Below, piece by piece: positions 125 through 21,365 of a DNA stretch of 64,000 bases. Source of the stretch: Lachnospiraceae bacterium 10-1 (lineage in GTDB: Bacteria > Bacillota > Clostridia > Lachnospirales > Lachnospiraceae); NCBI GenBank assembly GCA_000403495.2, contig KE159822.1, positions 1 through 64,000 on the forward strand, written 5' to 3'. Made by a program: the position numbers and the translations under genes. The notes under the pieces are model-generated. The model was given only the letters and a program-made list of their open reading frames with translations, did not search any database and was not told the origin of the DNA. Position 1 is the stretch's first letter. Each line of letters opens with the position of its first letter.

Positions 125-553
125 ATGTTAAAGGAGTTATTGCATCAAAAAAATATGTCCATATATAAATTGGCTGGGATAAGTGGAATTCCTTACAGTA
201 CATTAAATGATATTGTAAATTATAAAGTAGACATAGCTAATATCAGGGCAGGAATTGTATTTAAGCTGGCTGGGATATTAAATATTTCTATGGATAAATT
301 ATACGAGTTATGTACGAATCAGATAATAGTGTATTCAGAAGGATATTCGGTAAAAGGAACAGTGGCCATAAGGAATAAGAAATATATACTGGAATTTCAA
401 TATCAAAACAGGGAATTTACGGATGAACTTTGCCCGGTAAAAAAGGAAGCAACAATGTTTATTGAAAGCATAGCGCGCTGGCAGATGGAAAAATTGATAT
501 CAGATTATGAAATGGAGAAGATATATGAATTATGTATTAAAGCGCAAAGATGA
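125..553 (+). CDS. XRE-type HTH protein, probable HipB-like antitoxin
   Basis: This is a 142-residue protein. Residues 1-65 resemble a Cro/CI (XRE) helix-turn-helix: a conserved start (MLKELL...KNMSIYKLA), the recognition-helix stretch GIPYSTLNDIV, and a later LAGILNISMDKLYEL segment. The remaining 75 residues are a beta-rich segment without a recognised domain. It overlaps the next gene, which encodes a HipA-like kinase, so by analogy with HipBA it is probably the DNA-binding antitoxin and autorepressor of a two-gene operon. The order (HTH first, kinase second) and the overlap support that. The family assignment of the HTH is good; the antitoxin role is inferred. Confidence 0.7.
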   Translation: MLKELLHQKNMSIYKLAGISGIPYSTLNDIVNYKVDIANIRAGIVFKLAGILNISMDKLYELCTNQIIVYSEGYSVKGTVAIRNKKYILEFQYQNREFTDELCPVKKEATMFIESIARWQMEKLISDYEMEKIYELCIKAQR

Positions 554-1754
554 AATTATAACGGTTATTGATTTTGCTGATGATGGCAGTGTCTATAAGT
601 TTCATCAAAAATTAATTAATCCGGAATTGGCTCCATTGCATGATGATAATAATTTTAATTGGCTAAAACAATGGTGGAAGAGAAGGTCGATTCCGATAAC
701 GCAGGGAAATATCAGACAGATGCTTGAAAAGAAAGGGTTGCTTGGACCGGAAGACTTTTTGTTTAAGAATTTGGGATTATCGTTAACGGATTATTATTGG
801 ATATCGCCTTTGGATTCTGGGATGATGTGGAAAGATGTTAATCTTTTTGATAATGATTTTCATGGAAATGTTTTGCTTTATGAAGCCGAGGATGATAATT
901 ATGATAATTTGCCCCATTATACCCCTAATGGTTCCTTACAGGGAACATTGGAAAAAAGCTGGATCATATTAAATGGAGAGCGCGGTTTATTAAAAGGAAA
1001 TCGTGATAATTTGTCTTCGGAAAGCATCAATGAGGTTATAGCTTCAAAATTGCATGAAATGCAGGGATTCAACAATTACACGAAGTATAAACTCATCAGG
1101 ATCAATGGTCGAAATTATGACTATGGCTGCTATTCGAAGCTTTTTACTTCTGAAAAATTGGAACTGATATTTGCCTATGATGTGGTTTGTTCTGAAAAGA
1201 AATTGAATGACGTATCTGCTTTCGAACATTTTATTCAGGTCTGCGTAAAGCATGGACTGGACGAAGAGGAGCTTAGAAGCTATTTGGATTATATGATTTT
1301 ATCTGATTTTGTATTGTCAGGAAAAGATCGCCATTTAAGTAATATTTCTATTTTAAGAGATTCTGAAACTTTACAGTTTGTGAAACCGGCGCCGATTTAC
1401 GATAGCGGAAAATGCTTATTCGTACAGGACAGTGTGCCATCAAGTGATAAAGGATTACTTAGTATAAAGACAGAAAGCTTTGCCGGTGATGAATTGAAAC
1501 TGCTGGGATTGGTAACAGACAGAAGCCTTTTAGACATTACGAAACTTCCTCCCCGTTCCTTTATAGAAGAAATCTATAGCATGGATTCGCAAATTGATGA
1601 GAAAAGGATCAGCTTAATAGGTGAAGGATATGAAAGAAAAATTGAATTGTTTAGAGCATTCCAATTGGGGCAGGATCTCCATAAAGTAAAAATGGCAATG
1701 AAAAATTATCGAAAACCAATAGTGAATACAGAGGAATTTGTTATTCAAAAGTGA
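525..1754 (+). CDS. HipA-like serine/threonine kinase (toxin-like)
   Basis: The protein has 409 residues from the ATG at 525. That start is preceded by GGAGA at 514-518; an in-frame ATG at 507 has a poorer site. The C-terminal half carries HipA-type kinase motifs: GKDRHLSNI near residue 268 (catalytic Asp, Arg, His and Asn positions) and APIYDSG further on (metal-binding Asp). The N-terminal half diverges from E. coli HipA and lacks an obvious HipA N-terminal subdomain. HipA kinases phosphorylate a translation component such as glutamyl-tRNA synthetase; the target here is unknown. It overlaps the HTH gene, as in toxin-antitoxin operons. It could instead be a domesticated HipA-fold kinase without toxicity. 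Confidence 0.7.
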   Translation: MNYVLKRKDEIITVIDFADDGSVYKFHQKLINPELAPLHDDNNFNWLKQWWKRRSIPITQGNIRQMLEKKGLLGPEDFLFKNLGLSLTDYYWISPLDSGMMWKDVNLFDNDFHGNVLLYEAEDDNYDNLPHYTPNGSLQGTLEKSWIILNGERGLLKGNRDNLSSESINEVIASKLHEMQGFNNYTKYKLIRINGRNYDYGCYSKLFTSEKLELIFAYDVVCSEKKLNDVSAFEHFIQVCVKHGLDEEELRSYLDYMILSDFVLSGKDRHLSNISILRDSETLQFVKPAPIYDSGKCLFVQDSVPSSDKGLLSIKTESFAGDELKLLGLVTDRSLLDITKLPPRSFIEEIYSMDSQIDEKRISLIGEGYERKIELFRAFQLGQDLHKVKMAMKNYRKPIVNTEEFVIQK

Positions 1755-1873: not shown

Positions 1874-2082
1874 GCTAAGAATAAAGGCTTATGTCTTTTT
1901 TATGATAGAAAAATTAAGGGATTAACCTGAAATAGGAACTATAATTCATATTGAAAAATGTCGAAAAAAGAATAAAATAAATATAACGAAGAAATTTCCA
2001 AAATGAAAGATAATTTATAGTTATCTATTGGATTTATGGTGGAGAAATTGCTATGTGGTAAAATGTTTTTGGGAGATTAAAA

Positions 2083-3501
2083 ATGGGAAAAAACAAAAAT
2101 AGATTAAATAAATTTGTAAAATCATCAGAACCGCTTTTAAATGATTTAGTGGCTCATGGAAGAACTTTTTCAGGCAATTATCAAGGTGAAAATATCAAAC
2201 GCCTTAAATTAACAGATTGTATTTTTGATGGAGCTATACTTAATGATGTGGCAGCAACTGGTTCTAATTTTTGCAGGTGTAAATTTGAAGATTGTGATAT
2301 GGACCAGGGAGATTTCGAATATTGTGATTTTTTCAAATGTGATATCAAGGCAAAAACACGTATTTCAATCGCTTTCGATAATAGCAATTTTATCGAAACA
2401 AAAATACATGATTTAAAGTTTTACTCCAGTACTTTTTCCAATTCATTTTTTGATGAAACAGAATTTATAAATGTTGAAATAAATGACTGTACGTTAGAGG
2501 CAGCAACATTTCAGAGATGTTATTTTAAAAGCATTGATTTTAGCAATCTTAATTTGGATTTTGTTGATTTTCGCACTCCTCACTTTGATAAATCTATTTT
2601 ACCAATGTCACAAATTACATATACATATGGTCTTTTGCAGTATTTGATGACTACAGACGATAATGTTTATATTACTGAAAAAGGTAAAAAAATTGACTCT
2701 AAAAAATATATAGGTGAAGTTTTGCCTGCATTGCTGGAATTCTATTTGAATATGAATGAAGAAGAAAAAGCTAAAATCTATTTTCCTCTTATTAACATTT
2801 TATTGGTTTTGGATAATGTTGATGAAGCCAATAAATACTTGGAAAAAGCTTTGAACCTTTCAGCATCAATACAAGATTTTCGAATGCTGAAACATTATTG
2901 CAAACTGATTAATCTCAGCGAAAAATACACTACAAGACATAAAAAAAGTGTCTATCAGAGAATATGCAGTTTTTTCCGTCCCAGTACTATGACTTCATGG
3001 CAGTTAAAAGACTATTCCAGAAATATAGGGGATATGAAATATATTTTACTAATTGAAAACAATCTGCCTACGCTTGTATTTAACATTTTAACTGATATTT
3101 ATCATACTGGAATGGAGAAAATCGGGATTATCATAAGTGATATTTTAGGCTTATCTGACCAATATGACAGTACACCTCAAAGAGATATTCGCATTGAAAT
3201 AAGCAGAAATTCTCCGATTATGATTTCTGTACAATTTACTGAATCAATAGAAAATGTTTTTTACTTGTTAAAAGATTTGATTAAACTGACCTGCTACACT
3301 GTTTCAAAAGATCGTTTGTCGTTAAAATCAGATACCCCTATTATAGGCCATTTCCCTGCTGAATATACTACAGGCGATTATGAAATAAAAGAAAAATTAA
3401 TGAAATATGAACAGGTTCAATTATCTCTAGCATTATTGAATTTCCATATAGAAAATTGGACTAAAGAATATGGTTCAAATTATCCCGCCATCATTAATTG
3501 A
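2083..3501 (+). CDS. Pentapeptide-repeat protein with unknown C-terminal domain
   Basis: The protein has 472 residues. From about residue 30 to 165 it shows A(D/N)LXX-like pentapeptide units (CIFDGAILNDV, CKFEDCDMDQGDFEYCDF, SIDFSNLNLDFVDF), which fold as a right-handed quadrilateral beta-helix. Residues 210-290 look helical and TPR-like (EEEKAKIYFPL..., VDEANKYLEKALNL). The last 150 residues form an alpha/beta domain that is not recognised (DIRIEISRNSPIMISVQF). There is no signal peptide, so it is probably cytoplasmic. A membrane protein gene follows after 66 bp, so the two are probably co-transcribed. Pentapeptide proteins act as DNA mimics, scaffolds or conflict-system components; which applies here is unknown. 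Confidence 0.6.
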   Translation: MGKNKNRLNKFVKSSEPLLNDLVAHGRTFSGNYQGENIKRLKLTDCIFDGAILNDVAATGSNFCRCKFEDCDMDQGDFEYCDFFKCDIKAKTRISIAFDNSNFIETKIHDLKFYSSTFSNSFFDETEFINVEINDCTLEAATFQRCYFKSIDFSNLNLDFVDFRTPHFDKSILPMSQITYTYGLLQYLMTTDDNVYITEKGKKIDSKKYIGEVLPALLEFYLNMNEEEKAKIYFPLINILLVLDNVDEANKYLEKALNLSASIQDFRMLKHYCKLINLSEKYTTRHKKSVYQRICSFFRPSTMTSWQLKDYSRNIGDMKYILLIENNLPTLVFNILTDIYHTGMEKIGIIISDILGLSDQYDSTPQRDIRIEISRNSPIMISVQFTESIENVFYLLKDLIKLTCYTVSKDRLSLKSDTPIIGHFPAEYTTGDYEIKEKLMKYEQVQLSLALLNFHIENWTKEYGSNYPAIIN

Positions 3502-3567: not shown

Positions 3568-4290
3568 ATGAAACAGGCATATTACATTATTAACAGTAAG
3601 TTATTGGTTACCAATATCAATCATCATATAAACAAGCCATTATTATTTTGGATTCGAAAAATACTATGGTTCTTTTTTGTTATAACAATCTTTATTTGCA
3701 CAGGGCTTATATTTTATGTAATTTTATATTCAGACAATAATTTATTTAATGTAATCTCTTTGGGAGCTGTTTTCGCCACATTTGGTTCTACACTTGTCAG
3801 TATTGCCTCATTGCTTTGCAATAGATATTATGAAGAATTTAACAGTTGCATTAATATTTTCAAAAATGAATTATTGACACAGGAAATTAATTTCAATTGG
3901 ATTTTTCTAAAAAAGCAAGGTGTGGTTAGAAAATCTCAAAATGAATACATAATTTACCATGCAGATAATCCTAAAGTAGTTTTTGAAATAGGTTCTGTAA
4001 ATTTATCCATAGAAATTCCTGTCGAAAAAAAAGACTTCTATGAATTAGCACTTCTTAAAAAAATATTTAAAATGAAAATAGCCAAACAGACGTATCTTGT
4101 ATATTTGTTAAATTATGCGGATTCCATTATGGAATCTGGACTATATATATGGGAATGCACATACCATATATTATGCAGTGCTTTTTTTTATAAAATATAT
4201 CGAAATTTTATTATAACGGGTGTCATGTTCTTCATAAGCGGACTTGTTGCTGTTTTTTTATACCCCGTTATCATGCAAGGTTGCTTTTAG
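3568..4290 (+). CDS. Membrane protein with paired N-terminal helices, unknown function
   Basis: The protein has 240 residues. Two strong hydrophobic helices lie at about 27-53 (ILWFFFVITIFICTGLIFYV) and 60-84 (ISLGAVFATFGSTLVSIASLL). A soluble region of about 110 residues follows, and there is a further hydrophobic helix at the C terminus (IITGVMFFISGLVAVFLYPV). It is translated in the same direction as, and just after, the pentapeptide-repeat gene. Its 3' end overlaps the 3' end of the convergent ATP-grasp/radical-SAM gene by 33 bp. No family is recognised. A two-gene unit of soluble sensor or scaffold plus membrane partner is a reasonable but unproven reading. Confidence 0.5.
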   Translation: MKQAYYIINSKLLVTNINHHINKPLLFWIRKILWFFFVITIFICTGLIFYVILYSDNNLFNVISLGAVFATFGSTLVSIASLLCNRYYEEFNSCINIFKNELLTQEINFNWIFLKKQGVVRKSQNEYIIYHADNPKVVFEIGSVNLSIEIPVEKKDFYELALLKKIFKMKIAKQTYLVYLLNYADSIMESGLYIWECTYHILCSAFFYKIYRNFIITGVMFFISGLVAVFLYPVIMQGCF

Positions 4291-6561
4291 CACATTATCT
4301 TCGCAAAAGTGACATGCTGGCCCTAAAGGAACATTATATCTGCGGCAGATTTCCTCTGTTTGTTCCCATATTTTGAGAACCTCGTCACTAGCTGGAGCCC
4401 AGAAATTTTCTAACTGTTCAGCCGGTTTTATTAATGAGAGGATCGGGGATACTCCCAGTTTGCATAAAAATTCTACTCCTTGAAGGAGCGAATCTACAGG
4501 CTCTAATCCTACGATTAAAACACTTCGCACATTTCCATTTTTCCCCCAAAGCATAACAGCTTCTTTAAAAGCATTTTCATATCTTTCTAGCGATAATAAA
4601 CCTTTACCTGGCATATATTTACGGGCCAAAATACGATCATATATTTCCAAGTTAAATGCAACTTCAGTAACACCTGCTTCTTTCAAATGTGCTAATATTT
4701 TTGTTTCCTTTGGTGGAATAGACATTAAATAAATTTTTTTGGCAGTAGCATTATGAATATAACTGACAATTTTTATGATTTCAGAAAAATCATCTGAAGG
4801 TTTCTGCGAACCACCTCCTACCAGATAATGTTTGATAGATGGGTTGGAAATATAGGCTTGCAGCACCTCTTTAATATCTTCAAAAGAAAAAGTCTGGTCA
4901 GTGGATTCTATATCACAAAATGTACACCCAATGCCTTGTTCCTTAAAAAAACAGCCTTCACGCTGGTGTATTCTAAGACGGTCTACACCTAAATAGGCAA
5001 TCTCATTATAGCATATATGGTTCTTTGTCAACTGCTGTGCCAGCAAGTCATTAGTTCTGACAGATACTCTGGCAATGGGGTTCTCATAATAATTTAGCCA
5101 ATATTCGTTATTTATAAAAACTACCTCAAACGGACTAAGTTCGGAAAATTCTACCTTATATGGCACATTAAGAAATAATTTTCCCTCAACTGAAAGATCA
5201 ATCGCATAAAAAATTTCATAATTAATGCCACCATTTTGCGCAAGCTGCTCTACCGCCTGTTTGCTAATTCGTATACCCAAATTTAACATTAATACTTTAA
5301 AGCGTTTTATCTGTTTTGTCCAAGAAATGCCATCTAACAAATTAAAATCATAGTGGAAACCATTATATAATCTGCATGTATATTCAGGTGAAACACATGC
5401 GATATTTATTCTAAAAACCAGCTTAAAAAGATATGTATTGTTTTCCATTGGAATATTCCAATCCAAATTATCATCAATACATTGGGCAACTTCGGGACAG
5501 TCTTTGCTTTTTTCCCAAACATACTTCAACTGCTTTTTTGTCTTTGAATGAAAAGAATAATTATAAAAACTGTTTTCAATAGTCAAAACAGGAATATTGA
5601 AAGATGAAGTTTGATTGTAAAAAGAATCTATATGTAATTCCTGTAAGGAAGGTAATGATAACTTATTTAATGTATCATTAATTAAAAAAGACGAGGATTG
5701 AAATCTGGCATTAACCTCCATAAAAAAAACTTCGTCAGGAGTCGTTAAAAAATCAATGCCACAAATCCCTCTATACCCTCCGGCCTGTAAATGTTTACCA
5801 ATTATTTCGCTATACTGTTGAATTTTAGAAATAATATTTGAGGGCAATTGATTTAACATAAAGAAATCTGCACCGCCATAGCATAAATGTCTCTGATTTT
5901 CGTAAATAATTTGTACTGATGCAGGAAATAAAAGTATTTCCTGCTCATAAATAATCAAATGAATGTTTACAGAAATATTTTTTTCCTGAAAAGGAGTTAC
6001 AGTGTAAATAGATTGCGCACTAATATTTGATTGAATATCTTTCATATCATCATCATTTGAAATGAGCCATGTTCCTGATCCACCACAAGAAAAAGTCCCC
6101 TGTATTACAAAACTGTTTTCGTTCGGGAAAGCATTACAGATGTAGTCATAACTTAACTCTACTCCCAGCATAGTTGTAAATGGTATTACCGGAATTATTT
6201 TTGACAGCCATAATTTTGTATAAATCTTATTCTCAAGCAAATCTGTAATTGATGAGGAATTCATACATATAGCATGTTCTGAAATAATAGGATCATATTC
6301 ATCTACTTCCATTGGATAATATAGCAGAAATTTACATTGAGGATATTTTAGTAAAATTTTCGTTGCTGTTTCACTGATGAAAGAATTCAATCCATTATTA
6401 TCCTTATTGTAATCAATTCTTCTATTTTTTTCTTTTTCATAACTATAATTGTTTCTTTCATTGCTGCCAAAGACAGTAATAGAGCCGTCAAATAACTGCC
6501 CGGTGGCAGCAATTTCCGACTCACGAATACCAATCCAGAAAATTTTTTCTCCATGAAACAT
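4258..6561 (-). CDS. ATP-grasp ligase / radical SAM fusion protein
   Basis: The protein has 767 residues from the ATG at 6561, which follows a GGAGGA site; an upstream ATG at 6597 has none. Residues 1 to about 350 look like an ATP-grasp domain, with a glycine-rich nucleotide loop (FSCGGSGTW) and the metal-binding pattern MEVNAR near residue 280. After a linker of about 180 residues comes a radical SAM domain with Cys537, Cys546 and Cys549, a CX8CX2C arrangement instead of the common CX3CX2C. It is followed by VGGGSQKPSDD, which probably contacts SAM. A further CX2C (GPACHFCED) lies near the C terminus. ATP-grasp enzymes join a carboxylate to an amine or thiol, and radical SAM enzymes do radical chemistry, so the fusion suggests synthesis of a modified peptide or small metabolite. 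Substrate unknown. No precursor peptide gene was found beside it. Confidence 0.7.
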   Translation of the reverse strand: MFHGEKIFWIGIRESEIAATGQLFDGSITVFGSNERNNYSYEKEKNRRIDYNKDNNGLNSFISETATKILLKYPQCKFLLYYPMEVDEYDPIISEHAICMNSSSITDLLENKIYTKLWLSKIIPVIPFTTMLGVELSYDYICNAFPNENSFVIQGTFSCGGSGTWLISNDDDMKDIQSNISAQSIYTVTPFQEKNISVNIHLIIYEQEILLFPASVQIIYENQRHLCYGGADFFMLNQLPSNIISKIQQYSEIIGKHLQAGGYRGICGIDFLTTPDEVFFMEVNARFQSSSFLINDTLNKLSLPSLQELHIDSFYNQTSSFNIPVLTIENSFYNYSFHSKTKKQLKYVWEKSKDCPEVAQCIDDNLDWNIPMENNTYLFKLVFRINIACVSPEYTCRLYNGFHYDFNLLDGISWTKQIKRFKVLMLNLGIRISKQAVEQLAQNGGINYEIFYAIDLSVEGKLFLNVPYKVEFSELSPFEVVFINNEYWLNYYENPIARVSVRTNDLLAQQLTKNHICYNEIAYLGVDRLRIHQREGCFFKEQGIGCTFCDIESTDQTFSFEDIKEVLQAYISNPSIKHYLVGGGSQKPSDDFSEIIKIVSYIHNATAKKIYLMSIPPKETKILAHLKEAGVTEVAFNLEIYDRILARKYMPGKGLLSLERYENAFKEAVMLWGKNGNVRSVLIVGLEPVDSLLQGVEFLCKLGVSPILSLIKPAEQLENFWAPASDEVLKIWEQTEEICRRYNVPLGPACHFCEDNVLKATLHDNGV

Positions 6562-6640
6562 AATGATTCCTCCATCTATTCTCCACCATAAATCCAATAG
6601 ATAACTATAAATTATCTTTCATTTTAGAAATTATACTCTT

Positions 6641-8278: not shown

Positions 8279-8308
8279 CAGGCGGATGCTCTGGGTTCCG
8301 CCTGTTTT
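8279..8308. terminator. Bidirectional rho-independent terminator
   Basis: CAGGCGGA at 8279-8286 pairs with TCCGCCTG at 8297-8304, followed by TTTT. It sits between convergent genes and can serve both strands. Confidence 0.75.
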
Positions 8309-10125
8309 CAATTTCCATTTTTATATTCATACTCATCCATGAGATGTAACAAATGATTATATTGGATAATATCACAATCATCATCAGTGCTGTTGATAAA
8401 TTCCTGAATTGTTTCTCGGGCGATTTTTTTTGCCGGACCGCAGGAGATTTTGACAAGATAGTTCCAATATTTATCATAAGAGCCGCAAAAATATCCATTT
8501 AAATTGCTCAGTATTTCTTTGACCAGTTGTGAATAATGAGTTTTATCTAAACAGATTTTTTGGTGGCTGATATGATCATATTTAATCTTTTTATAATCTG
8601 TTGATTGATTGGATGCAACTTGATTGGAATTATGTTCATTTACACAATCAATAAAGCGCATGGTATCACTGTCACATTTGAAAGAGTTATCGAAATGTAT
8701 ATAAGCCCATTGTCCATAATCAAATGTAGAATTGACAGGAAGCTCACAGGCAATTGGCAGTAATTTGTGAAAAAATTTTTTCCTTAATCCCAGTTTTTGA
8801 AGTGAATCAAATAATGAAATTACCATATGCTGTGAAGAAAAGTATTTCAGGTCTTTTTGTTCAATTTTTTTATTGATATAATTCAGCACTATCTTATCAA
8901 GTTCTTTCCCAGGCGAGGGCATTGCGTTCAGTTCCCAAATGGTTGATTGGAGTGGGGCTTCACTTTCAGCCTTTTCTTCTCTTTTTCTTTGCTGTTGAAA
9001 AGTAATGCAGGGATCATTTCCATATACTTTTTCTATTAATGTATCACTGCCAAGAACCTTTACCAAGTTTGTGATTTGCTGTTCCAATTGCTTTTTATTT
9101 TTATAATAAATTATGGTGTTTATGCCATTATGATTGATCAAATCTCTTAAAATGTCACCATCTGTTACATCCAGAGAATGTCCAAAAATATACAAAGTAT
9201 TTTGCTTATTGAGTTCTGGATTTTCATCTATTTCTTTCAACCAGTTTTTATAGTTATTTGTGGTATTTTTATAAATTCTCTGATAGTATTTTTTAAATGG
9301 AAGAAAATCCATTTCTTTGTCTTTTCTGTCATCAGGAAGATATTCATCAATTCCCAATACCATATTATTTTCTGACATATATATTTCCAGTATATTAGGT
9401 GATTCTTCTAAATTTTTGAGAAAAAACAGGTCAAATCTTGTATATCCATGCACAAAGTGATAATTGTCTATATTTTGAACAGCAGCGTATAAATGCAAAT
9501 ATGTTTGGGAGTAATTAAAACTTATTATTTTGTCAAACGAATTATATAATATGTCAGGGTTGTAATATTGAATATTCATGTGATTTATATAATATTCAAT
9601 ATAAATTTCCAATGCGCAAATCAGTCTGTTTAAATCCAAAATCATTGGTTTAATATTTGCTTTGATTCTATCAATTTCCAGAGATTCCTTATCAACAAAT
9701 TTAGTTAAAGTTTCCATGCACAGGTTACATAAAACAGTATCTTCCACTCCTGTAAGTCTGTAATTATCATAATATTTGATTAAACGATCCATTGTCTGCA
9801 CTACTGACGAGATTTCACTTTCGAAATCAATCCAGTTTTCCTTAAGAAAAAGATGCTCGTCATGAACTTTAATAAAATAGTTGATCCATAGATTCCCATA
9901 TATTAATTTGCGCAATGCATTGACTATAATCTCATGGTCAGATATTTTTATGTCATTTCTAAAAGCAGAAGAAAAATAGATATTTTCAAATTCACGTATT
10001 GCAGATGCATTATTTGGAGAGTAATAGGCTTGATTAAAGTCCTTTATAAACTTAAGAAAATCAGTGTATTTTGTTGGCAGACCATGTTCTAAGTCAAAAC
10101 CATTTCCTATCATTAGTATATTCAT
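8308..10125 (-). CDS. AbiH family abortive-infection protein with long C-terminal extension
   Basis: The protein has 605 residues. The N terminus MNILMIGNGFDLEHGLPTKY is the signature of the AbiH family (PF14253): a Rossmann-like glycine motif followed by LPTxYxDF. The AbiH domain appears to run to about residue 345, with IISFNYSQTY and LYIFGHSLDVTDGDIL as the other family-typical blocks. The last 240 residues are not explained by AbiH and contain no recognised motif. AbiH was described as a phage abortive-infection protein in Lactococcus; its biochemical activity is not settled. The gene stands alone between a terminator and the PadR/membrane pair, all on the minus strand. A defence role fits the neighbourhood. 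Confidence 0.75.
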   Translation of the reverse strand: MNILMIGNGFDLEHGLPTKYTDFLKFIKDFNQAYYSPNNASAIREFENIYFSSAFRNDIKISDHEIIVNALRKLIYGNLWINYFIKVHDEHLFLKENWIDFESEISSVVQTMDRLIKYYDNYRLTGVEDTVLCNLCMETLTKFVDKESLEIDRIKANIKPMILDLNRLICALEIYIEYYINHMNIQYYNPDILYNSFDKIISFNYSQTYLHLYAAVQNIDNYHFVHGYTRFDLFFLKNLEESPNILEIYMSENNMVLGIDEYLPDDRKDKEMDFLPFKKYYQRIYKNTTNNYKNWLKEIDENPELNKQNTLYIFGHSLDVTDGDILRDLINHNGINTIIYYKNKKQLEQQITNLVKVLGSDTLIEKVYGNDPCITFQQQRKREEKAESEAPLQSTIWELNAMPSPGKELDKIVLNYINKKIEQKDLKYFSSQHMVISLFDSLQKLGLRKKFFHKLLPIACELPVNSTFDYGQWAYIHFDNSFKCDSDTMRFIDCVNEHNSNQVASNQSTDYKKIKYDHISHQKICLDKTHYSQLVKEILSNLNGYFCGSYDKYWNYLVKISCGPAKKIARETIQEFINSTDDDCDIIQYNHLLHLMDEYEYKNGN

Positions 10126-13904: not shown

Positions 13905-14106
13905 AATATATGGATAATAAAGAGTTATCCCTTAGAATTTTTAGTTTGGAAACAAAGGATAATTCCTAATTAGCAGACAGAAATTCGGTTGGATATCTTT
14001 TTTACTCACCAAGGAAAACTCTAATAGGTTTAAAATTAATTAATGATGAAACACTGTATCCGAAACTGTTATAAGAATCGGTAGTTTTTAGTGGAGAAAT
14101 AGTTAT

Positions 14107-16611
14107 ATGCTTAATACAGATGTATTTAAATTTGAATTTGTTAATCGAAAAAGAGAACGTCAAATAATAGACAAATTCATTGGTAATTTTTTAGAACCAA
14201 CTAAACAGGCGCTTTGGATGCACGGCGAACGTGGTACTGGTAAGAGTTTCTTATTAACGGAATATGTTGTCCAGCGGAGCAGTTTTTCTAGTGTTTATGT
14301 TAATGTCGAAGTTGAAAACAATACATCATTTACATATTTGAAAAACCTTATTTCCCAAATAAATGGAGTGGCTAAATTAAAATTCACAAATTTTATACGA
14401 ACAAATTATGATTCTATAGCAGATGTTGGACAGCAAGCAATAGGTGTAGTTTTAAGTATATTGGAAATGAATGATTTTCAATTGGACAAATTAAGTTACT
14501 CAATTTCTAATTATTTCATATCTAAACGAGGCGAACGAGAAAATTCCACAGCACTTGTCAAGAAGTATTTTTTAGAAGCATTGAAGAAATGTCCAAGATT
14601 AGTTTTTATATTTGATAATTTTACCCAATGTGATACTTCTTCACTGGATGTTATTACTTCTGTTACTCATGAATTAATAGATAATCCCAATATAAGATTT
14701 ATATTTTGTACTACAGATGATGATATAAAGAATCGATTTGACATTCAACAAATTCTAGCAGAAAAAATTGCCAACATTCCAATGGAAGTATCCGCTTTTG
14801 ATGAAAAACAGCTTTTTGTTCGTATGATTGAACAGAATTTTGATTTTGATGAAGAAAATCTGGCTTTAATTTCACGAACTTTTGATTTGTGTAAAGGTTA
14901 TCCACAGCGTTTTAAAGAGATACTAATTAATCTCTATACCAATCAAGGAATTGAAATAAATAATGGAAAAGCAAGATTTATTATAGATGTTTTTCATCAG
15001 ATTTTAGTTAAAAAAACTATATCATTTGATATTGATGCTTTATGTCAAGGACATAGAGGTGCAAAAAATATACTTCAAATTATTGCCTTCTGGGGTGCTC
15101 CTATATCTATTAATGTATTATTTCAATTTATAGATTTTTTTGTAAATATAGATCCAATTTCTTTTGTTAAAAAGGAGGCTGGAAAAACAATTCAAATATT
15201 GGAAGATATGCATGTCTTATCTCGTTCATATAGAGATAAGACAATTTTACTACATTATGAACATGACTCTCTGAAAATTGCAGTTAAAGAATATTTTAAA
15301 AATGAGCGTTCAATACAGTTTTTACACTTAAATATTTATGAATTTATTAAATCAGTAAATTCCAGCCAAGAGCAAACCTATTGGGATGAATATCAACATT
15401 CGTTACTTGCCTATCATTCTTATGAAGCCCAAATTGATGGGTGGATTGAATACAATTTTGCGTATGGATATGATTTTTTTAAAAATAAATTGTATAAAGA
15501 AGCAGAAGTAATTTTTGCAAGGTTAGAGTCTTCTATAACTTCTCTATTAGGAGAGCAAATACTTATAATGGGAATTACACTTTTTTATTGTGGACAGTAC
15601 CATAAGGCGAATGACTTATTTAAAAATATTTGGGCACACGAATTATTAAATGATTTTTCAGAAGAGCAACTTGTCAAGTTGTATATTTTTCAAGCTCGTT
15701 CAAGATCCTGTATTCTGGAAACACAAAGTGCTCTTGAATTAATTGTGCAAGCAGAAAAATTAGATATATCAGACGAGCATCTACAAATGCTACTATTGGG
15801 AACAAAGCAAAGTATTTTATATTTATCGCCAAATGGTTTTACGGAGGCAAAAAAACTTTTTGATGATCTAACCGCAAAAAATATTCATATTCGAGAAATG
15901 GCATTGATTTATCAATCAGCAATGGACTATTATGAGGGAGAAAAAGCACTAGAATTACTCAATAAAGGACTGAATCTTGCAAAAAAATTTTCAGATAAGA
16001 TAACGGAAGCAAAGATTTTAAATAATATGGGTTTTGAACATTTACGCATTGGAAACTATGAGCAGGCACAGGAATTATTTGAAAACAGTATTTCAATACT
16101 AGTAGAGGATCAACCTCATGAACAGGTGTATCCTTATAGTAATCTTTCGGTACTTTACATGATTTCAAAAGATTGGCAAAAAGCACTTGACTGTATTTTT
16201 GAAGCTCTTTTTTGGAATAAATCCGATTATGTTTCTTATGTTTTAAAAACTAATCGTATGCTGTGCTATTATTTTATAGGGAATAGCCAGTGGGAAAAAT
16301 TGTATAATGAACTGTTTAAATATGTTGAGGTTAATCGGCGCATAGATGATAAAATTTATAAAAAAATTTGTATAAATTTGGCTATATTAGCCCAAAAATG
16401 TGATAAGCAATATGATTTAGAACAATTGCTAAAATTATGTTCCCCTCACCTCAAAAATGAATGGGAATATGGGAAATACCGCTTTTTAAAATTGGAACAA
16501 TCAATAACTGGATTATCACAGGCACTTCCAAAGCCAACTGATTCTTGTTATATACAATATTATTGTGATATAGAATTTGAACCATGGCTGGTTAATTTTA
16601 CCCATGATTAA
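14107..16611 (+). CDS. STAND-like ATPase with C-terminal TPR-like repeats
   Basis: The protein has 834 residues. A P-loop GERGTGKS lies at 40-47, and a Walker-B-like strand LVFIFDNF near 165-173 is followed by a sensor-like FIFCTTDDD. Residues 1-290 form an AAA/STAND NTPase and 300-400 are probably the winged-helix part. From about 440 to 780 the protein is helical, with TPR-like pairs (ILNNMGFEHLRIGNYEQAQELFENS, SNLSVLYMISKDWQKALDCI). STAND proteins are switches: the repeats sense a ligand and the NTPase oligomerises. No effector domain is visible at either end, so the effector may be a separate protein. The gene converges on, and overlaps by 14 bp, the interrupted ATP-grasp gene. Anti-phage signalling and transcriptional control are both possible. 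Confidence 0.7.
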   Translation: MLNTDVFKFEFVNRKRERQIIDKFIGNFLEPTKQALWMHGERGTGKSFLLTEYVVQRSSFSSVYVNVEVENNTSFTYLKNLISQINGVAKLKFTNFIRTNYDSIADVGQQAIGVVLSILEMNDFQLDKLSYSISNYFISKRGERENSTALVKKYFLEALKKCPRLVFIFDNFTQCDTSSLDVITSVTHELIDNPNIRFIFCTTDDDIKNRFDIQQILAEKIANIPMEVSAFDEKQLFVRMIEQNFDFDEENLALISRTFDLCKGYPQRFKEILINLYTNQGIEINNGKARFIIDVFHQILVKKTISFDIDALCQGHRGAKNILQIIAFWGAPISINVLFQFIDFFVNIDPISFVKKEAGKTIQILEDMHVLSRSYRDKTILLHYEHDSLKIAVKEYFKNERSIQFLHLNIYEFIKSVNSSQEQTYWDEYQHSLLAYHSYEAQIDGWIEYNFAYGYDFFKNKLYKEAEVIFARLESSITSLLGEQILIMGITLFYCGQYHKANDLFKNIWAHELLNDFSEEQLVKLYIFQARSRSCILETQSALELIVQAEKLDISDEHLQMLLLGTKQSILYLSPNGFTEAKKLFDDLTAKNIHIREMALIYQSAMDYYEGEKALELLNKGLNLAKKFSDKITEAKILNNMGFEHLRIGNYEQAQELFENSISILVEDQPHEQVYPYSNLSVLYMISKDWQKALDCIFEALFWNKSDYVSYVLKTNRMLCYYFIGNSQWEKLYNELFKYVEVNRRIDDKIYKKICINLAILAQKCDKQYDLEQLLKLCSPHLKNEWEYGKYRFLKLEQSITGLSQALPKPTDSCYIQYYCDIEFEPWLVNFTHD

Positions 16612-17013
16612 TATTCAATCGTTCTTGGGCTGTATGAATAATATTTGAAACGATTTTTCCATAAGATATATTTAACTCACAACTGATTAAGCCGATTTCA
16701 GAGGTTTTACTAATTACAGGATTACCATTAATTTCAATAAAAAACAATTGACCATTTTTTTGAAGCCGGAAATCTATTCTGGCAAAATCACGCATATTTA
16801 ATGCTTCGAATACGCATTTGGCAGCTTGGCATATTTTTTCAATTTGTTTCTTTTCTAAAATATTGCGTGCAAGAAATTCTTTTCTAGAATGGCTTGCCTT
16901 TTCCTCTAAACCAAATACAAAATTATCAAAATAACGAATTCCGTTATATTCACATATAATAGGCTCATTTAAATAATAACTGCCTTTATTTCCAATTACA
17001 AAACAGGTTATTT
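16598..17013 (-). pseudogene. Ddl-like ATP-grasp ligase, C-terminal half (cut by IS66)
   Basis: This is the 3' part of a gene split by the IS66 element. It carries the metal-binding end of the ATP-grasp fold (FARIDFRLQKNGQLFFIEIN, then GNPVIS), equivalent to the RVDF...LEVNTxPG block of D-alanine-D-alanine ligases. Joined to 19777-20373 with one copy of the target duplication, it gives an uninterrupted frame of 334 residues, the usual size of this family. It has no start of its own after the insertion, so it is unlikely to be made. Confidence 0.85.
17006..17013. repeat. IS66 target site duplication, left copy
   Basis: GGTTATTT directly abuts the left end of the element and is repeated at 19777-19784. 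Eight base pairs is the duplication length typical of IS66. Confidence 0.95.
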
Positions 17014-17034
17014 GTAAACGTCAAATCATACGCC
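17014..17034 (+). repeat. IS66 left terminal inverted repeat
   Basis: It begins GTAAACGTCAAATCATACG and matches the right end in reverse complement at 19 of 21 positions. Confidence 0.95.
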
Positions 17035-19732: not shown

Positions 19733-19749
19733 AAAGCGGCGTTGCTTTA
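19723..19749 (+). terminator. Terminator overlapping the tnpC stop
   Basis: ACGCCGCT (19723-19730) and AGCGGCGT (19735-19742) form a perfect GAAA-loop hairpin followed by TGCTTTATT. The tnpC stop codon lies in the loop. Confidence 0.8.
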
Positions 19750-19755
19750 TTCTGT

Positions 19756-19776
19756 GGCGTATGGTTTGACGCTTAC
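19756..19776 (-). repeat. IS66 right terminal inverted repeat
   Basis: In reverse complement it begins GTAAGCGTCAAACCATACG and matches the left end with two differences. Confidence 0.95.
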
Positions 19777-19784
19777 GGTTATTT
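19777..19784. repeat. IS66 target site duplication, right copy
   Basis: GGTTATTT, identical to 17006-17013. Confidence 0.95.
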
Positions 19785-20373
19785 CGTATCCCGGTATGTA
19801 TTCTTCTATTATGACTTCATGGTATTTTGATAATAGCATTGGTAATCGTTCATGAAGTTCCGTAAAGTTTGCACAAATATTTTTTTGTGAGATTCCTAAT
19901 GACGATCCTTCGCGATTTGGTTTTATTACTACAGGAAATTTGGGTGGCTGTGTAATAGTATCATTCTGGAAAATTAACATATCATGAGGTACATTTACAC
20001 ATGAACTTACTAGTTTTTTGGCGTAGGTTTTATTTCCGGCCATTAACATAGATAATGCATCCGATCCTGTATAAGGAACACCTAGATATTCCAATAATAT
20101 AGCAGTTTGAGCTTTTCTATTTTTTTGTATTAATCCATCAGAAAAGTTTAAAAATAAAGCTTTTTGAAATTGTTTTTTTTGAGAGCATGCTTCAATTAAT
20201 TTCTCTACACCACCAAATATTTCAACGTTATATCCATTTTCTTGTAATTGCCTTGCTAAATAAGCAATACTTTCAGCGCTGGGATGATCATTATATGGGT
20301 GTATAGCTGAGTTGGATTCATTATCAAATTGCTCTCTGGTATCTGCAATAATATAATATTTTTTAAATTTCAT
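19777..20373 (-). pseudogene. Ddl-like ATP-grasp ligase, N-terminal part (cut by IS66)
   Basis: It starts at the ATG at 20373, one base after the methyltransferase stop, so the two genes were translationally coupled. The 199 codons include ALSMLMAGNKTYAKKLV, KPNREGSSLGIS (the nucleotide loop of D-Ala-D-Ala ligases) and EEYIPGYEIT, where IS66 entered. Reading runs 9 codons into the element and stops. The N terminus lacks the GGxSxExxVS motif of housekeeping Ddl, so the enzyme may have joined a non-standard amino acid pair or dipeptide. Insertion removes the metal-binding end and must inactivate it. Confidence 0.88.
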
Positions 20374-20374
20374 T

Positions 20375-21115
20375 TCAACTTTTCCTCTCAAAAAGTATAA
20401 ATGTATATCCTTCATTCTGATGTAATAAGACCTGATTTTGATAATCTGTTTCCATTAAAGAAACACCATATTGATATTCCTCACTTGAAATTAAGTTTAA
20501 AACGGAAAGAGACTTTTGTCGTATCCGTTCCAAAAAAGTGCCGGATATAGAAGCAGTGATTTGAGTTTCGGTTTTTACAGTTTCTCTATGTACCCATCCT
20601 GCATTTTCACCAATTCTGATGACTTCCTCAATGGGGTGAAATCTTTTTTGATCAATACTAAGTATACTTGGAAAATATTTTAACCAATATTTTTCCTTTA
20701 GTTGATCAGATGATTCTGTACATATACAAAATTTTGCACCGTTATTGGATATCTTAAATAAATTTTGGAAGAGTAAATCAAGATGGTCTATATGGTGAAC
20801 TACATCAGTGCTATATAATTTGTTGAAACGGATATTTGAAAACGGTATAGCTGTATGATCACCAGCTAAAATATGATCCGATTGTAGTTTTTCTTGTGCA
20901 ATTTTGCGCATTTTAACCGAAGGTTCTATTCCGTATACTTCAATCCCGTAATCTATGGAAAACTGTTTTAAATAGTTTCCAGTTCCACAACCGAAATCAA
21001 GAATTGCCTCATCTTTTTGAGGAGTAAGCATACATGATAGTATTGAGTAAACAATTGGTTCAATAGTTCTCGTTCTTTCATAATTAAACGCTTGTTGGTT
21101 ATAATCAATTTTCAT
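20375..21115 (-). CDS. Class I SAM-dependent methyltransferase
   Basis: The protein has 246 residues. Motif I is AILDFGCGTGNYLKQF, motif II has the acidic end of the second strand (VYGIEPSVKM), and the post-motif block is AIPFSNIRFNKLYSTDVVHHI. This is the Methyltransf_11/25 fold, probably acting on a small molecule. It is the first gene of a two-gene operon with the ATP-grasp ligase, and its stop lies one base from the ligase start. The pair suggests that a ligated dipeptide or amino acid derivative is methylated. The substrate is not deducible. The gene itself is intact. Confidence 0.8.
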   Translation of the reverse strand: MKIDYNQQAFNYERTRTIEPIVYSILSCMLTPQKDEAILDFGCGTGNYLKQFSIDYGIEVYGIEPSVKMRKIAQEKLQSDHILAGDHTAIPFSNIRFNKLYSTDVVHHIDHLDLLFQNLFKISNNGAKFCICTESSDQLKEKYWLKYFPSILSIDQKRFHPIEEVIRIGENAGWVHRETVKTETQITASISGTFLERIRQKSLSVLNLISSEEYQYGVSLMETDYQNQVLLHQNEGYTFILFERKS

Positions 21116-21196
21116 TTGAAAGCTCCAATCTAAAACATACTAAAAGAAATAATATTATTTGCCATATGTTTTGCATGATATAAATAAATCCAACGG

Positions 21197-21365
21197 ATAA
21201 CTCTTTATTATCCATAACTTCCATACCCAATCACCCAAAACATCCAATTCCCCTCCAATAATATTTCCCGAAAAATTTCCACCCCCAAAATTCAATTTCT
21301 TCGCTCCACCTCCCTCCTCCCCCACCACCCCACACACTACCCCAAACCTCCCGTTCACAACATCT
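21197..21365. other. G-depleted, C-run tract with quadruplex potential on the minus strand
   Basis: Over 169 bp the plus strand has only three G residues (21270, 21303, 21353), while C runs are frequent. On the minus strand, G runs at 21312-21352 (GGG, GGGG, GGGG, GGGGG, GGG, with loops of 6, 8, 4 and 4) could fold as a G-quadruplex. The tract occupies most of the intergenic space upstream of the LytTR regulator. An antisense 82-codon frame across it has no ribosome binding site and is not accepted as a gene. Confidence 0.6.

What the first reader, a model, noticed from the sequence alone, without database searches (positions are those of the whole stretch)
4258..6561. ATP-grasp/radical SAM fusion with CX8CX2C cluster motif
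Seen: one 767-residue protein with ATP-grasp motifs (FSCGGSGTW, MEVNAR), a long unassigned middle and a radical SAM-like part with Cys537, Cys546, Cys549 and a late CX2C. Known: ATP-grasp enzymes make amide or thioester bonds; radical SAM enzymes usually have CX3CX2C. Inference: a single polypeptide could ligate an amino acid and then do radical chemistry on it, pointing to an undescribed modified peptide or cofactor. It lies in an island with no other biosynthetic genes except a second ATP-grasp/methyltransferase pair 14 kb away.
Basis: partly seen in the sequence, partly recalled or inferred. Interest (0 to 1): 0.72.

Follow-up and report, generated by a model that had tools for sequence, protein, structure and literature searches.

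The report
Flippable enzyme-or-effector gene cassette
The enzyme fusion is one half of a stretch of DNA that a recombinase probably flips back and forth, so that the bacterium makes either this enzyme or a partner protein that resembles immune sensors or effectors.

Summary
The ATP-grasp/radical-SAM fusion is real (window 4258-6561, minus strand, 767 aa). Both domains pass curated cut-offs. C537, C546, C549, C750 and C753 are invariant in 35 of 35 aligned homologues, and the model (pLDDT 92, pTM 0.90) has the strand/helix order of a partial TIM barrel. The Cys pattern is not unique: MSMEG_0568-type proteins have CX9CX2C plus the late CX2C. The larger finding surrounds it. The fusion converges on a pentapeptide-repeat gene (2083-3501, plus), and a 54-nt inverted repeat (1993-2046 / 6579-6632) with core GATAAYNNNNNRTTATC bounds the pair. 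Of 34 loci with the convergent partner, 31 carry repeats above all controls; the other 3 sit on contigs ending 19-49 nt from a called gene start. The own genome has two more such cassettes, one being the 'second ATP-grasp/methyltransferase pair', and a dedicated XerC-like recombinase on another contig. In relatives it lies beside cassettes pairing varied enzymes with ATPase/TPR, TIR or pentapeptide proteins, in both orientations. I read this as a multi-locus either/or DNA-inversion switch. Inversion within one strain, the promoter, the product and any defence role are unproven. Ten searches of open papers gave no description of it.

The parts
4258..6561 (-). ATP-grasp/radical SAM fusion, 767 aa (ATP-grasp matches within 98-318, radical SAM match 420-741)
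3568..4290 (+). Small hydrophobic protein (240 aa; membrane protein by eye, no family above cut-off) between partner and fusion; homologues in 8 loci including the window
2083..3501 (+). Pentapeptide-repeat protein (472 aa; beta-solenoid to about 175, then helices and an alpha/beta end), convergent partner of the fusion
1993..2046 (+). Left arm of the 54-nt inverted repeat (98% complementary); core 2009-2025 GATAATTTATAGTTATC
6579..6632 (-). Right arm of the same inverted repeat; core 6600-6616, exact reverse complement of the left core
13909..13942 (+). Left arm (34 nt, 88%) of the second cassette; core 13913-13929
14107..16611 (+). ATPase/TPR protein (834 aa; TPR_12 passes, AAA_16 just below cut-off; 'STAND-like' is my label), effector-like half of the second cassette
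16610..17017 (-). C-terminal piece of the ATP-grasp gene of the second cassette, separated by the insertion next to it
   Evidence: tblastn with the L177 homologue, 33% identity
17109..19732 (+). Insertion-sequence ORFs (IS66-type by recall; no family search was run on them) inside that ATP-grasp gene
19747..20415 (-). N-terminal piece of the same ATP-grasp gene (222-aa ORF; Dala_Dala_lig_C passes)
20375..21115 (-). Methyltransferase (246 aa), enzyme half of the second cassette
21183..21216 (-). Right arm of the second cassette; core 21196-21212

Best explanation
The fusion is the enzyme half of a site-specifically invertible two-faced cassette. Two convergent transcription units, [ATP-grasp/radical SAM enzyme, in some relatives with a RaSEA-like radical SAM and a nitroreductase] and [pentapeptide-repeat effector-like protein plus a small hydrophobic protein], are enclosed by inverted repeats whose cores (GATAAY-N5-RTTATC) are the crossover sites of a dedicated XerC-like tyrosine recombinase. 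In this genome the recombinase is encoded on another contig, near a third cassette, and would act in trans on the two cassettes of the window; each cassette has its own spacer, which would keep exchange within a pair. A promoter in the flank outside one repeat would transcribe whichever half faces it, so a cell expresses either the enzyme or the partner. The enzyme most likely activates a carboxylate as acyl phosphate, ligates an amino acid or amine, and uses a CX8CX2C [4Fe-4S] radical SAM site to rearrange or couple it into a small metabolite. Shown here: architecture, site pairs, recombinase association, conservation, co-inheritance of the halves, both orientations among related units. Inferred: inversion within one strain, promoter choice, mutual exclusion, the chemistry, and a defence-like role of the partner.
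For: Inverted repeats enclose the pair in 31 of 34 loci with the convergent partner, each above all its same-locus controls; 30 have the ATAA-N7-TTAT core in or within 12 nt of the arm (two of the 34, L065 and L066, have ATP-grasp without radical SAM). Own genome: 8 core sites against 1 for the pattern read backwards; six form three same-spacer inverted pairs, each around a convergent pair of genes. A recombinase 70% identical to that beside the L049 cassette lies on C20; the next best match is 33%. 39 of 299 family genomes have it at E<=1e-70; 18 of 40 fetched recombinase loci show a cored repeat around convergent genes. Same-spacer pairs on one contig: 13 of 20 recombinase-positive genomes, 1 of the 14 listed of 20 negatives. 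Recombinase within 3 kb in 33 of 41 cassettes, next to the enzyme in 18 and the partner in 15. L174 against L176 and L180: homologous cassettes inverted relative to a collinear recombinase. Five contigs run exactly from repeat to repeat; 8 of 42 recombinase genes lie within 250 nt of a contig end, 0.55 expected. Fusion and partner distances correlate (r=0.889, n=27, 0 of 5000 permutations); with the recombinase much less (n=12: 0.333 and 0.139).
Against: No reads were available, so inversion within one strain is not shown. At the site shared by L028 and L029 the flanks are collinear and the cassette is reversed, but the two fusions are only 34% identical while the recombinase gene is 77% identical in DNA, so this may be cassette replacement. 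Promoter evidence is weak: 15 of 40 cassettes have a flank with p<0.05, and in the window both flanks score alike (p 0.05 and 0.06). In the window the recombinase is not adjacent; 8 of 41 cassettes have none adjacent, and that counted for L184 has an internal stop. 22 of 40 recombinase loci showed no cored repeat. Single core sites are common and not diagnostic: 206 of 299 genomes have one or more. One recombinase-negative genome (G223) has two pairs. Four fusion loci (L023, L025, L026, L042) lack the convergent partner. Repeats longer than an assembler's word also break contigs without mixed orientation. Eight of 10 effector-like proteins match no PADLOC model. Several labels rest on sub-threshold matches.
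Confidence: 0.78

Rival explanations
1. The inverted repeats are the ends of a mobile cassette that the recombinase inserts or exchanges at fixed sites, in either orientation; inversion in place is at most a side effect.
For: At the orthologous site of L028 and L029 the flanks are conserved (77-82% DNA) while the cassette is a diverged allele in the other orientation. Fusion and partner distances correlate with each other far better than with the recombinase. The fusion is scattered over records titled Lachnospiraceae, Bacilli, Bacteroidales, Chitinispirillales, Rhodospirillales and Gallionellaceae.
Against: Tyrosine recombinases acting on inverted identical sites give inversion (established knowledge). 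The spacer is identical within each pair and differs between the pairs of the own genome. Gene starts lie close to the arms, in L021 with both start codons inside them, which a plain mobile element would not need.
Confidence: 0.25
2. An ordinary convergent gene pair: a biosynthetic enzyme and a self-protection or scaffold protein; the repeats are regulatory or incidental.
For: In L023 and L025 the enzyme operon is followed, on the same strand, by a longer pentapeptide protein without the convergent layout. AlbG, Qnr and MfpA, which protect gyrase from poisons (established knowledge), are the best structural matches of the partner.
Against: Arms reach 124 nt without mismatch (L030) and score above all controls in 31 of 34 loci; the same core and recombinase family enclose unrelated enzyme/effector-like pairs.
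Confidence: 0.07
3. The fusion is just a new NF045502 radical SAM enzyme making one cofactor or peptide, and the flanking genes are unrelated neighbours in a defence island.
For: NF045502 passes its cut-off. An AbiH gene (121.1 vs 30.9 bits) and a HipA-like gene (18.7, below 30.5) lie nearby.
Against: The partner is conserved convergently in 34 of 40 loci examined, whereas AbiH and the HipA-like gene have no homologue among the ORFs of L014-L093.
Confidence: 0.04

Closest known systems
NF045502 variant radical SAM / MSMEG_0568 (TIGR04043) radical SAM proteins of nitrilase clusters
   Same: Same radical SAM domain model, wide Cys spacing and late CX2C.
   Different: Here fused to ATP-grasp; CX8 instead of CX9; TIGR04043 cut-off missed (90.7 vs 303.7 bits).
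Clostridioides difficile RecV switches
   Same: One tyrosine recombinase inverting several loci in a Clostridia genome (abstract starts; passages).
   Different: The passages describe short segments controlling adjacent genes; here the segment carries two convergent units of different function.
Hin, Gin, Cin and Pin gene-containing invertible segments
   Same: DNA inversion changes which genes are expressed (passages of the PinQ paper).
   Different: Serine recombinases and (in part recalled) alternative flagellar or phage host-range proteins; here a XerC-like enzyme, and the alternatives are an enzyme and an effector-like protein.
Streptococcus pneumoniae programmed inversions (PsrA)
   Same: Inversion by a tyrosine recombinase, linked to peptidoglycan acetylation and genome methylation states (titles and abstract starts).
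   Different: Different genes; no such enzyme-versus-effector pairing in what I saw.
Hailong HalA and Qnr/AlbG/MfpA pentapeptide proteins
   Same: Pentapeptide beta-solenoid.
   Different: NF051894 cut-off missed (34.5 vs 250 bits); the partner has a further C-terminal half; no HalB-like gene was noticed nearby (not searched).

Membership tests
Radical SAM superfamily (NF045502 variant_rSAM) | Curated model score | tested here: met
   140.8 vs 125 bits; Pfam Radical_SAM 35.9 vs 29.5
Radical SAM superfamily (NF045502 variant_rSAM) | Conserved three-Cys motif | tested here: met
   invariant in 35 of 35 rows
Radical SAM superfamily (NF045502 variant_rSAM) | Partial TIM barrel holding the three Cys | tested here: inconclusive
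   secondary-structure order fits; coordinates not available, radical SAM half not searched alone
Radical SAM superfamily (NF045502 variant_rSAM) | [4Fe-4S] cluster and SAM cleavage | not testable with these tools
   needs purified protein
MSMEG_0568 family (TIGR04043) | Curated cut-off | tested here: not met
   90.7 vs 303.7 bits
MSMEG_0568 family (TIGR04043) | Nitrilase-cluster context (as in L185) | not tested
   no nitrilase noticed by eye near the fusion; none searched for
ATP-grasp superfamily | Curated score and conserved residues | tested here: met
   ATP-grasp_3 32.1 vs 23.2 bits; invariant residues; PurK-type structural matches
Tyrosine-recombinase invertible DNA element | Inverted repeats with a common core flanking the segment | tested here: met
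Tyrosine-recombinase invertible DNA element | Dedicated recombinase in the genome | tested here: met
   C20:15985-16902; within 3 kb in 33 of 41 cassettes
Tyrosine-recombinase invertible DNA element | Both orientations occur in one strain | tested here: inconclusive
   seen between related units; contig breaks are suggestive; no reads
Tyrosine-recombinase invertible DNA element | Promoter outside the repeat selects the expressed half | tested here: inconclusive
   16 of 80 flanks p<0.05, 4 expected; 25 of 40 cassettes neither side; similar extended -10 beside the repeat in L028 and L029
Known anti-phage systems (PADLOC) | Match to a PADLOC model | tested here: not met
   8 of 10 effector-like proteins, the window's two included, have no match; the TIR parts of L155 and L159 match PDC-S66 and, L159, RT-TIR_XII in part
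Hailong HalA | NF051894 cut-off | tested here: not met
   34.5 vs 250 bits
RaSEA (TIGR01210), for the upstream radical SAM of relatives | Curated cut-off | tested here: not met
   125.6 vs 212.15 bits for L029

The most novel reading that the evidence does not exclude
A genome-wide producer/responder switch: one recombinase independently sets several cassettes so that each cell either makes a particular small metabolite (enzyme half) or expresses the matched ATPase/TPR, TIR or pentapeptide protein that senses it or is triggered by it or by phage. A clonal population is thereby split into cells with different chemical marks and different immune receptors. The tight co-inheritance of the halves would reflect a metabolite-receptor match.
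Probability: 0.2. Interest if true: 0.93.

Novelty: new variant of a known kind. Interest (0 to 1): 0.8.

Why it matters
Invertible DNA is known mainly for switching surface structures, restriction specificity or adjacent genes (partly recalled). Here one site and recombinase family encloses many cassettes, each setting an enzyme against a protein that resembles immune sensors or effectors. If inversion is confirmed, it gives a simple handle (repeats of known position, a recombinase to delete) on what such ATPase/TPR, TIR and pentapeptide proteins do together with metabolite enzymes, and it means that one genome sequence of such a strain shows only one of several expression states. It also gives the variant radical SAM family a testable genetic context.

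Tried and rejected
Rejected: that the Cys spacing is unique. Rejected: that the AbiH and HipA-like neighbours belong to the fusion's system; neither recurs among the ORFs of L014-L093. Rejected as proof of inversion in place: L028 against L029, because the cassette alleles are too different. The promoter scan gave only weak support. The viral-contig scan found 48 pattern matches but no relative. PDB sequence search of the fusion gave nothing useful. L165 pairs a pentapeptide protein with a different, aminotransferase-like enzyme, but that protein matches the partner family by profile only in the repeat part, so it is no evidence of swapped halves.

Rows dropped: the 41 cassettes are 3 of the own genome, 22 of the other 30 loci with repeats (L015, L018, L024, L031, L034, L036, L038 and L043 dropped because a contig ends at or near an arm), and 16 of the 18 (L172 is the same locus as L029; L178 has enzyme-like ORFs on both strands). 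One search also lost L029 for a short flank. A3 left out L019, L023, L025, L026, L035 and L046. The labels enzyme and effector-like are mine.

Literature: ten searches gave no description of this cassette. I saw listings and abstract starts, and passages by 'find' of PMC7159879, PMC7824862, PMC12529663 and PMC5903667; no paper was read whole, and only open papers are held.
Full report
Observation. The quoted motifs and Cys are where it said. Pfam ATP-grasp_3 and Radical_SAM pass their cut-offs, as does NCBIfam NF045502 variant_rSAM. In an alignment of 35 homologues (window plus 34 of the 37 loci L014-L050; L016, L020 and L048 left out for short or split ORFs) C537, C546, C549, C750, C753 and K112, Q154, E282, N284, R286 are invariant. 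The AlphaFold2 model has mean pLDDT 92.3 and pTM 0.90, and after the Cys loop its helices and strands alternate as in a partial TIM barrel; I had no coordinates to measure closure or the Cys cluster. The best Foldseek matches are PurK-type ATP-grasp enzymes, pyruvate carboxylases and some amino-acid or peptide ligases; no aligned ranges are given, so that they cover the N-terminal half is inference.

The motif is not unique. Two MSMEG_0568 proteins on plasmids (L185, in a nitrilase cluster; L186, beside a nitrilase) have CX9CX2C and the late CX2C; a stand-alone relative in L013 has CX8CX2C. The fusion is therefore a variant member of a known radical SAM type. TIGR04043 itself is missed (90.7 vs 303.7 bits).

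Distribution and neighbours. Of 299 genomes of the family 7 had a match at E<=1e-20; 6 matches are full-length, the window's own included. A scan of genome contigs found 132 relatives among 260 pattern matches, of which the best 80 loci were kept. The full-length fusions come mostly from records titled Lachnospiraceae or other Clostridia, with three titled Bacilli (one of them with a split ORF) and one each titled Bacteroidales, Chitinispirillales, Rhodospirillales, Gallionellaceae and Candidatus Magnetocorallium. A RaSEA-like radical SAM gene (L029: 125.6 bits, below the 212.15 cut-off) lies upstream in 14 of the 38 near loci scanned (window and L014-L050), and a nitroreductase domain is separate in 4 and fused to the N-terminus in 2. 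The window itself has neither. A PLP-decarboxylase-like gene (tested for L042: nspC 342.0 bits, below the 409 cut-off) follows in L023, L025, L026 and L042.

The conserved partner. A pentapeptide-repeat gene with a further C-terminal half converges on the fusion. Its model (pLDDT 86.3, pTM 0.74) shows the beta-solenoid, then helices and an alpha/beta end. Structural matches include AlbG, Qnr, MfpA and, lower, HalA.

The inverted repeats. Repeat searches in six loci showed long inverted repeats with one arm near the start of each convergent unit, e.g. 112 nt and 104 nt at 100% in L049 and L035. In the window the arms are 1993-2046 and 6579-6632, 54 nt, 98%. Of 40 loci examined (window, L014-L050, L065, L066), 34 have the convergent partner; in 31 the repeat scores above every same-locus control (117-189 per locus), and 30 have the core ATAA-N7-TTAT in or within 12 nt of the arm. 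L065 and L066 have ATP-grasp without radical SAM. The 3 failures, L019, L020 and L046, lie on contigs that end 28, 49 and 19 nt from a called gene start. Of the 6 loci without the partner, L017 ends 132 nt and L048 1,409 nt after the fusion match; L023, L025, L026 and L042 have room for it and lack it. In 41 cassettes ATAA and TTAT are fixed by the search; the next position is G in 40 of 41 on one side and C in 37 of 41 on the other. In L021 both start codons lie in the arms, so inversion would also exchange the translation start.

Three cassettes in this genome. GATAAYNNNNNRTTATC occurs 8 times in 4.57 Mb (1 for the pattern read backwards): two arms here, two at 13913 and 21196 of the window, two on C20, and two lone sites on C1. 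Within a pair the sites are exact reverse complements; between pairs the spacers differ. The third encloses an SHMT-like enzyme (68.1 vs 27 bits) and an ATPase with hydrophobic N-terminus inside an 88-nt perfect repeat. A XerC-like recombinase lies 2.4 kb from the third cassette. It is 70% identical to the recombinase beside the L049 cassette; the genome's next best match to that one is 33%.

A family of such cassettes. The recombinase occurs in 39 of 299 family genomes at E<=1e-70, the own included. Of 40 recombinase loci fetched, 18 show a cored inverted repeat around convergent genes (L172 is the same locus as L029); of the 22 that do not, 8 have the recombinase within 250 nt of a contig end. 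Effector-like halves with family matches above cut-off: TIR (L155, L159), AAA-type ATPase (L106, L147, L163, L177), TPR (L155, L159, L177, window) and pentapeptide repeats (L165); below cut-off: NB-ARC (L149), Mrr nuclease (L163, L178); without match: L169. Enzyme halves above cut-off: D-Ala-ligase-type ATP-grasp (L155, L169), carbamoyltransferase (L147), GT2 glycosyltransferase (L151), SHMT (L106), KamA-family radical SAM (L159) and D-ribitol-5-phosphate cytidylyltransferase (L163); weaker: SHMT and threonine-dehydrogenase-like (L149), aminotransferase-like (L165), glycosyltransferases (L153, L154); without match: L174 and the second L153 enzyme. STAND is my label for the ATPase/TPR proteins. 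Single core sites are common (206 of 299 genomes), so the count alone means little; same-spacer inverted pairs on one contig occur in 13 of 20 recombinase-positive genomes and in 1 (G223, two pairs) of the 14 negatives whose sites were listed, of 20 searched and chosen for high site counts.

Evidence for inversion. (a) The recombinase lies within 3 kb of 33 of 41 cassettes (one of them, L184, with an internal stop); the enzyme is nearer in 18, the partner in 15. (b) L174 against L176 and L180: homologous cassettes aligned in minus with the recombinase in plus. This is the cleanest case, though in another cassette type than the fusion's. (c) L028 against L029: flanks on both sides collinear, inside reversed, and a similar extended -10 element just outside the repeat on the side away from the recombinase; but the fusions are 34% identical, so replacement is possible. 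(d) Contigs L015, L018, L024, L038 and L043 run exactly from arm to arm, and 8 of 42 recombinase genes lie within 250 nt of a contig end, 0.55 expected. (e) Promoter-like sites: of 80 flanks 16 have p<0.05 (4 expected), 10 on the enzyme and 6 on the effector-like side, and only 1 of the 15 cassettes concerned has them on both; 25 of 40 have none.

The halves belong together. Distances between fusions and between partners correlate with r=0.889 (27 loci with fusion ORF of 700 aa or more and partner of 430 aa or more; 0 of 5000 permutations reach it). In the 12 of these with a recombinase in the locus, enzyme-partner is 0.918 (1 of 5000), enzyme-recombinase 0.333 (289 of 5000) and partner-recombinase 0.139 (1169 of 5000). 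Physical linkage alone could produce the first; the contrast suggests that the cassette, not cassette plus recombinase, is the inherited unit.

Interpretation. I take the system to be an either/or inversion switch. Phase-variable inversion by tyrosine recombinases is known, including one recombinase acting on several loci in C. difficile (abstract starts and passages). What I did not find in ten searches is a recurrent cassette that sets an enzyme against an ATPase/TPR, TIR or pentapeptide protein. The role of the product is open: surface or metabolite modification as an alternative to intracellular defence, or a metabolite matched to its receptor. The window's partner proteins match no PADLOC model, so defence is an analogy, not membership.

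Noticed in passing
window 507-1754, 8308-10125: A HipA-like gene (18.7 bits, below the 30.5 cut-off) and an AbiH gene (121.1 vs 30.9) lie close by; neither recurs among the ORFs of L014-L093.
   Followed up: partly
L068, L070, L072-L075, L080, L081, L084, L086, L087, L093: Recurrent group of a glycosyltransferase (in L081 GT4-conflict passes, TCAD9 does not), a guanylate-kinase-like protein, an ATP-grasp related to the fusion's (with NUDIX in L081) and in 10 of these 12 loci a further conserved gene of about 725 aa.
   Followed up: partly
L013 8341-14503: Stand-alone variant radical SAM (138.6 vs 125 bits) and ATP-grasp genes next to genes that by eye look like an M20 peptidase, a PP-loop protein and an aldehyde dehydrogenase: a possible unfused relative of the pathway.
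   Followed up: no
L159 1929-6912: Cassette setting a TIR-TPR protein against a KamA-family radical SAM and an ATP-grasp-like gene (the latter by eye): two enzyme types as in the fusion, but unfused and of another radical SAM family.
   Followed up: partly
L023 13481-16027, L025 13225-16095: Fusion operons without the convergent layout but followed by long pentapeptide proteins on the same strand (Pfam run for L023); the L025 one begins with a hydrophobic segment and a Thr/Ser-rich stretch.
   Followed up: no
G176:C3:22611 (in the contig of L029): A third copy of the cassette's core site with the same spacer, 16.5 kb from the pair.
   Followed up: no
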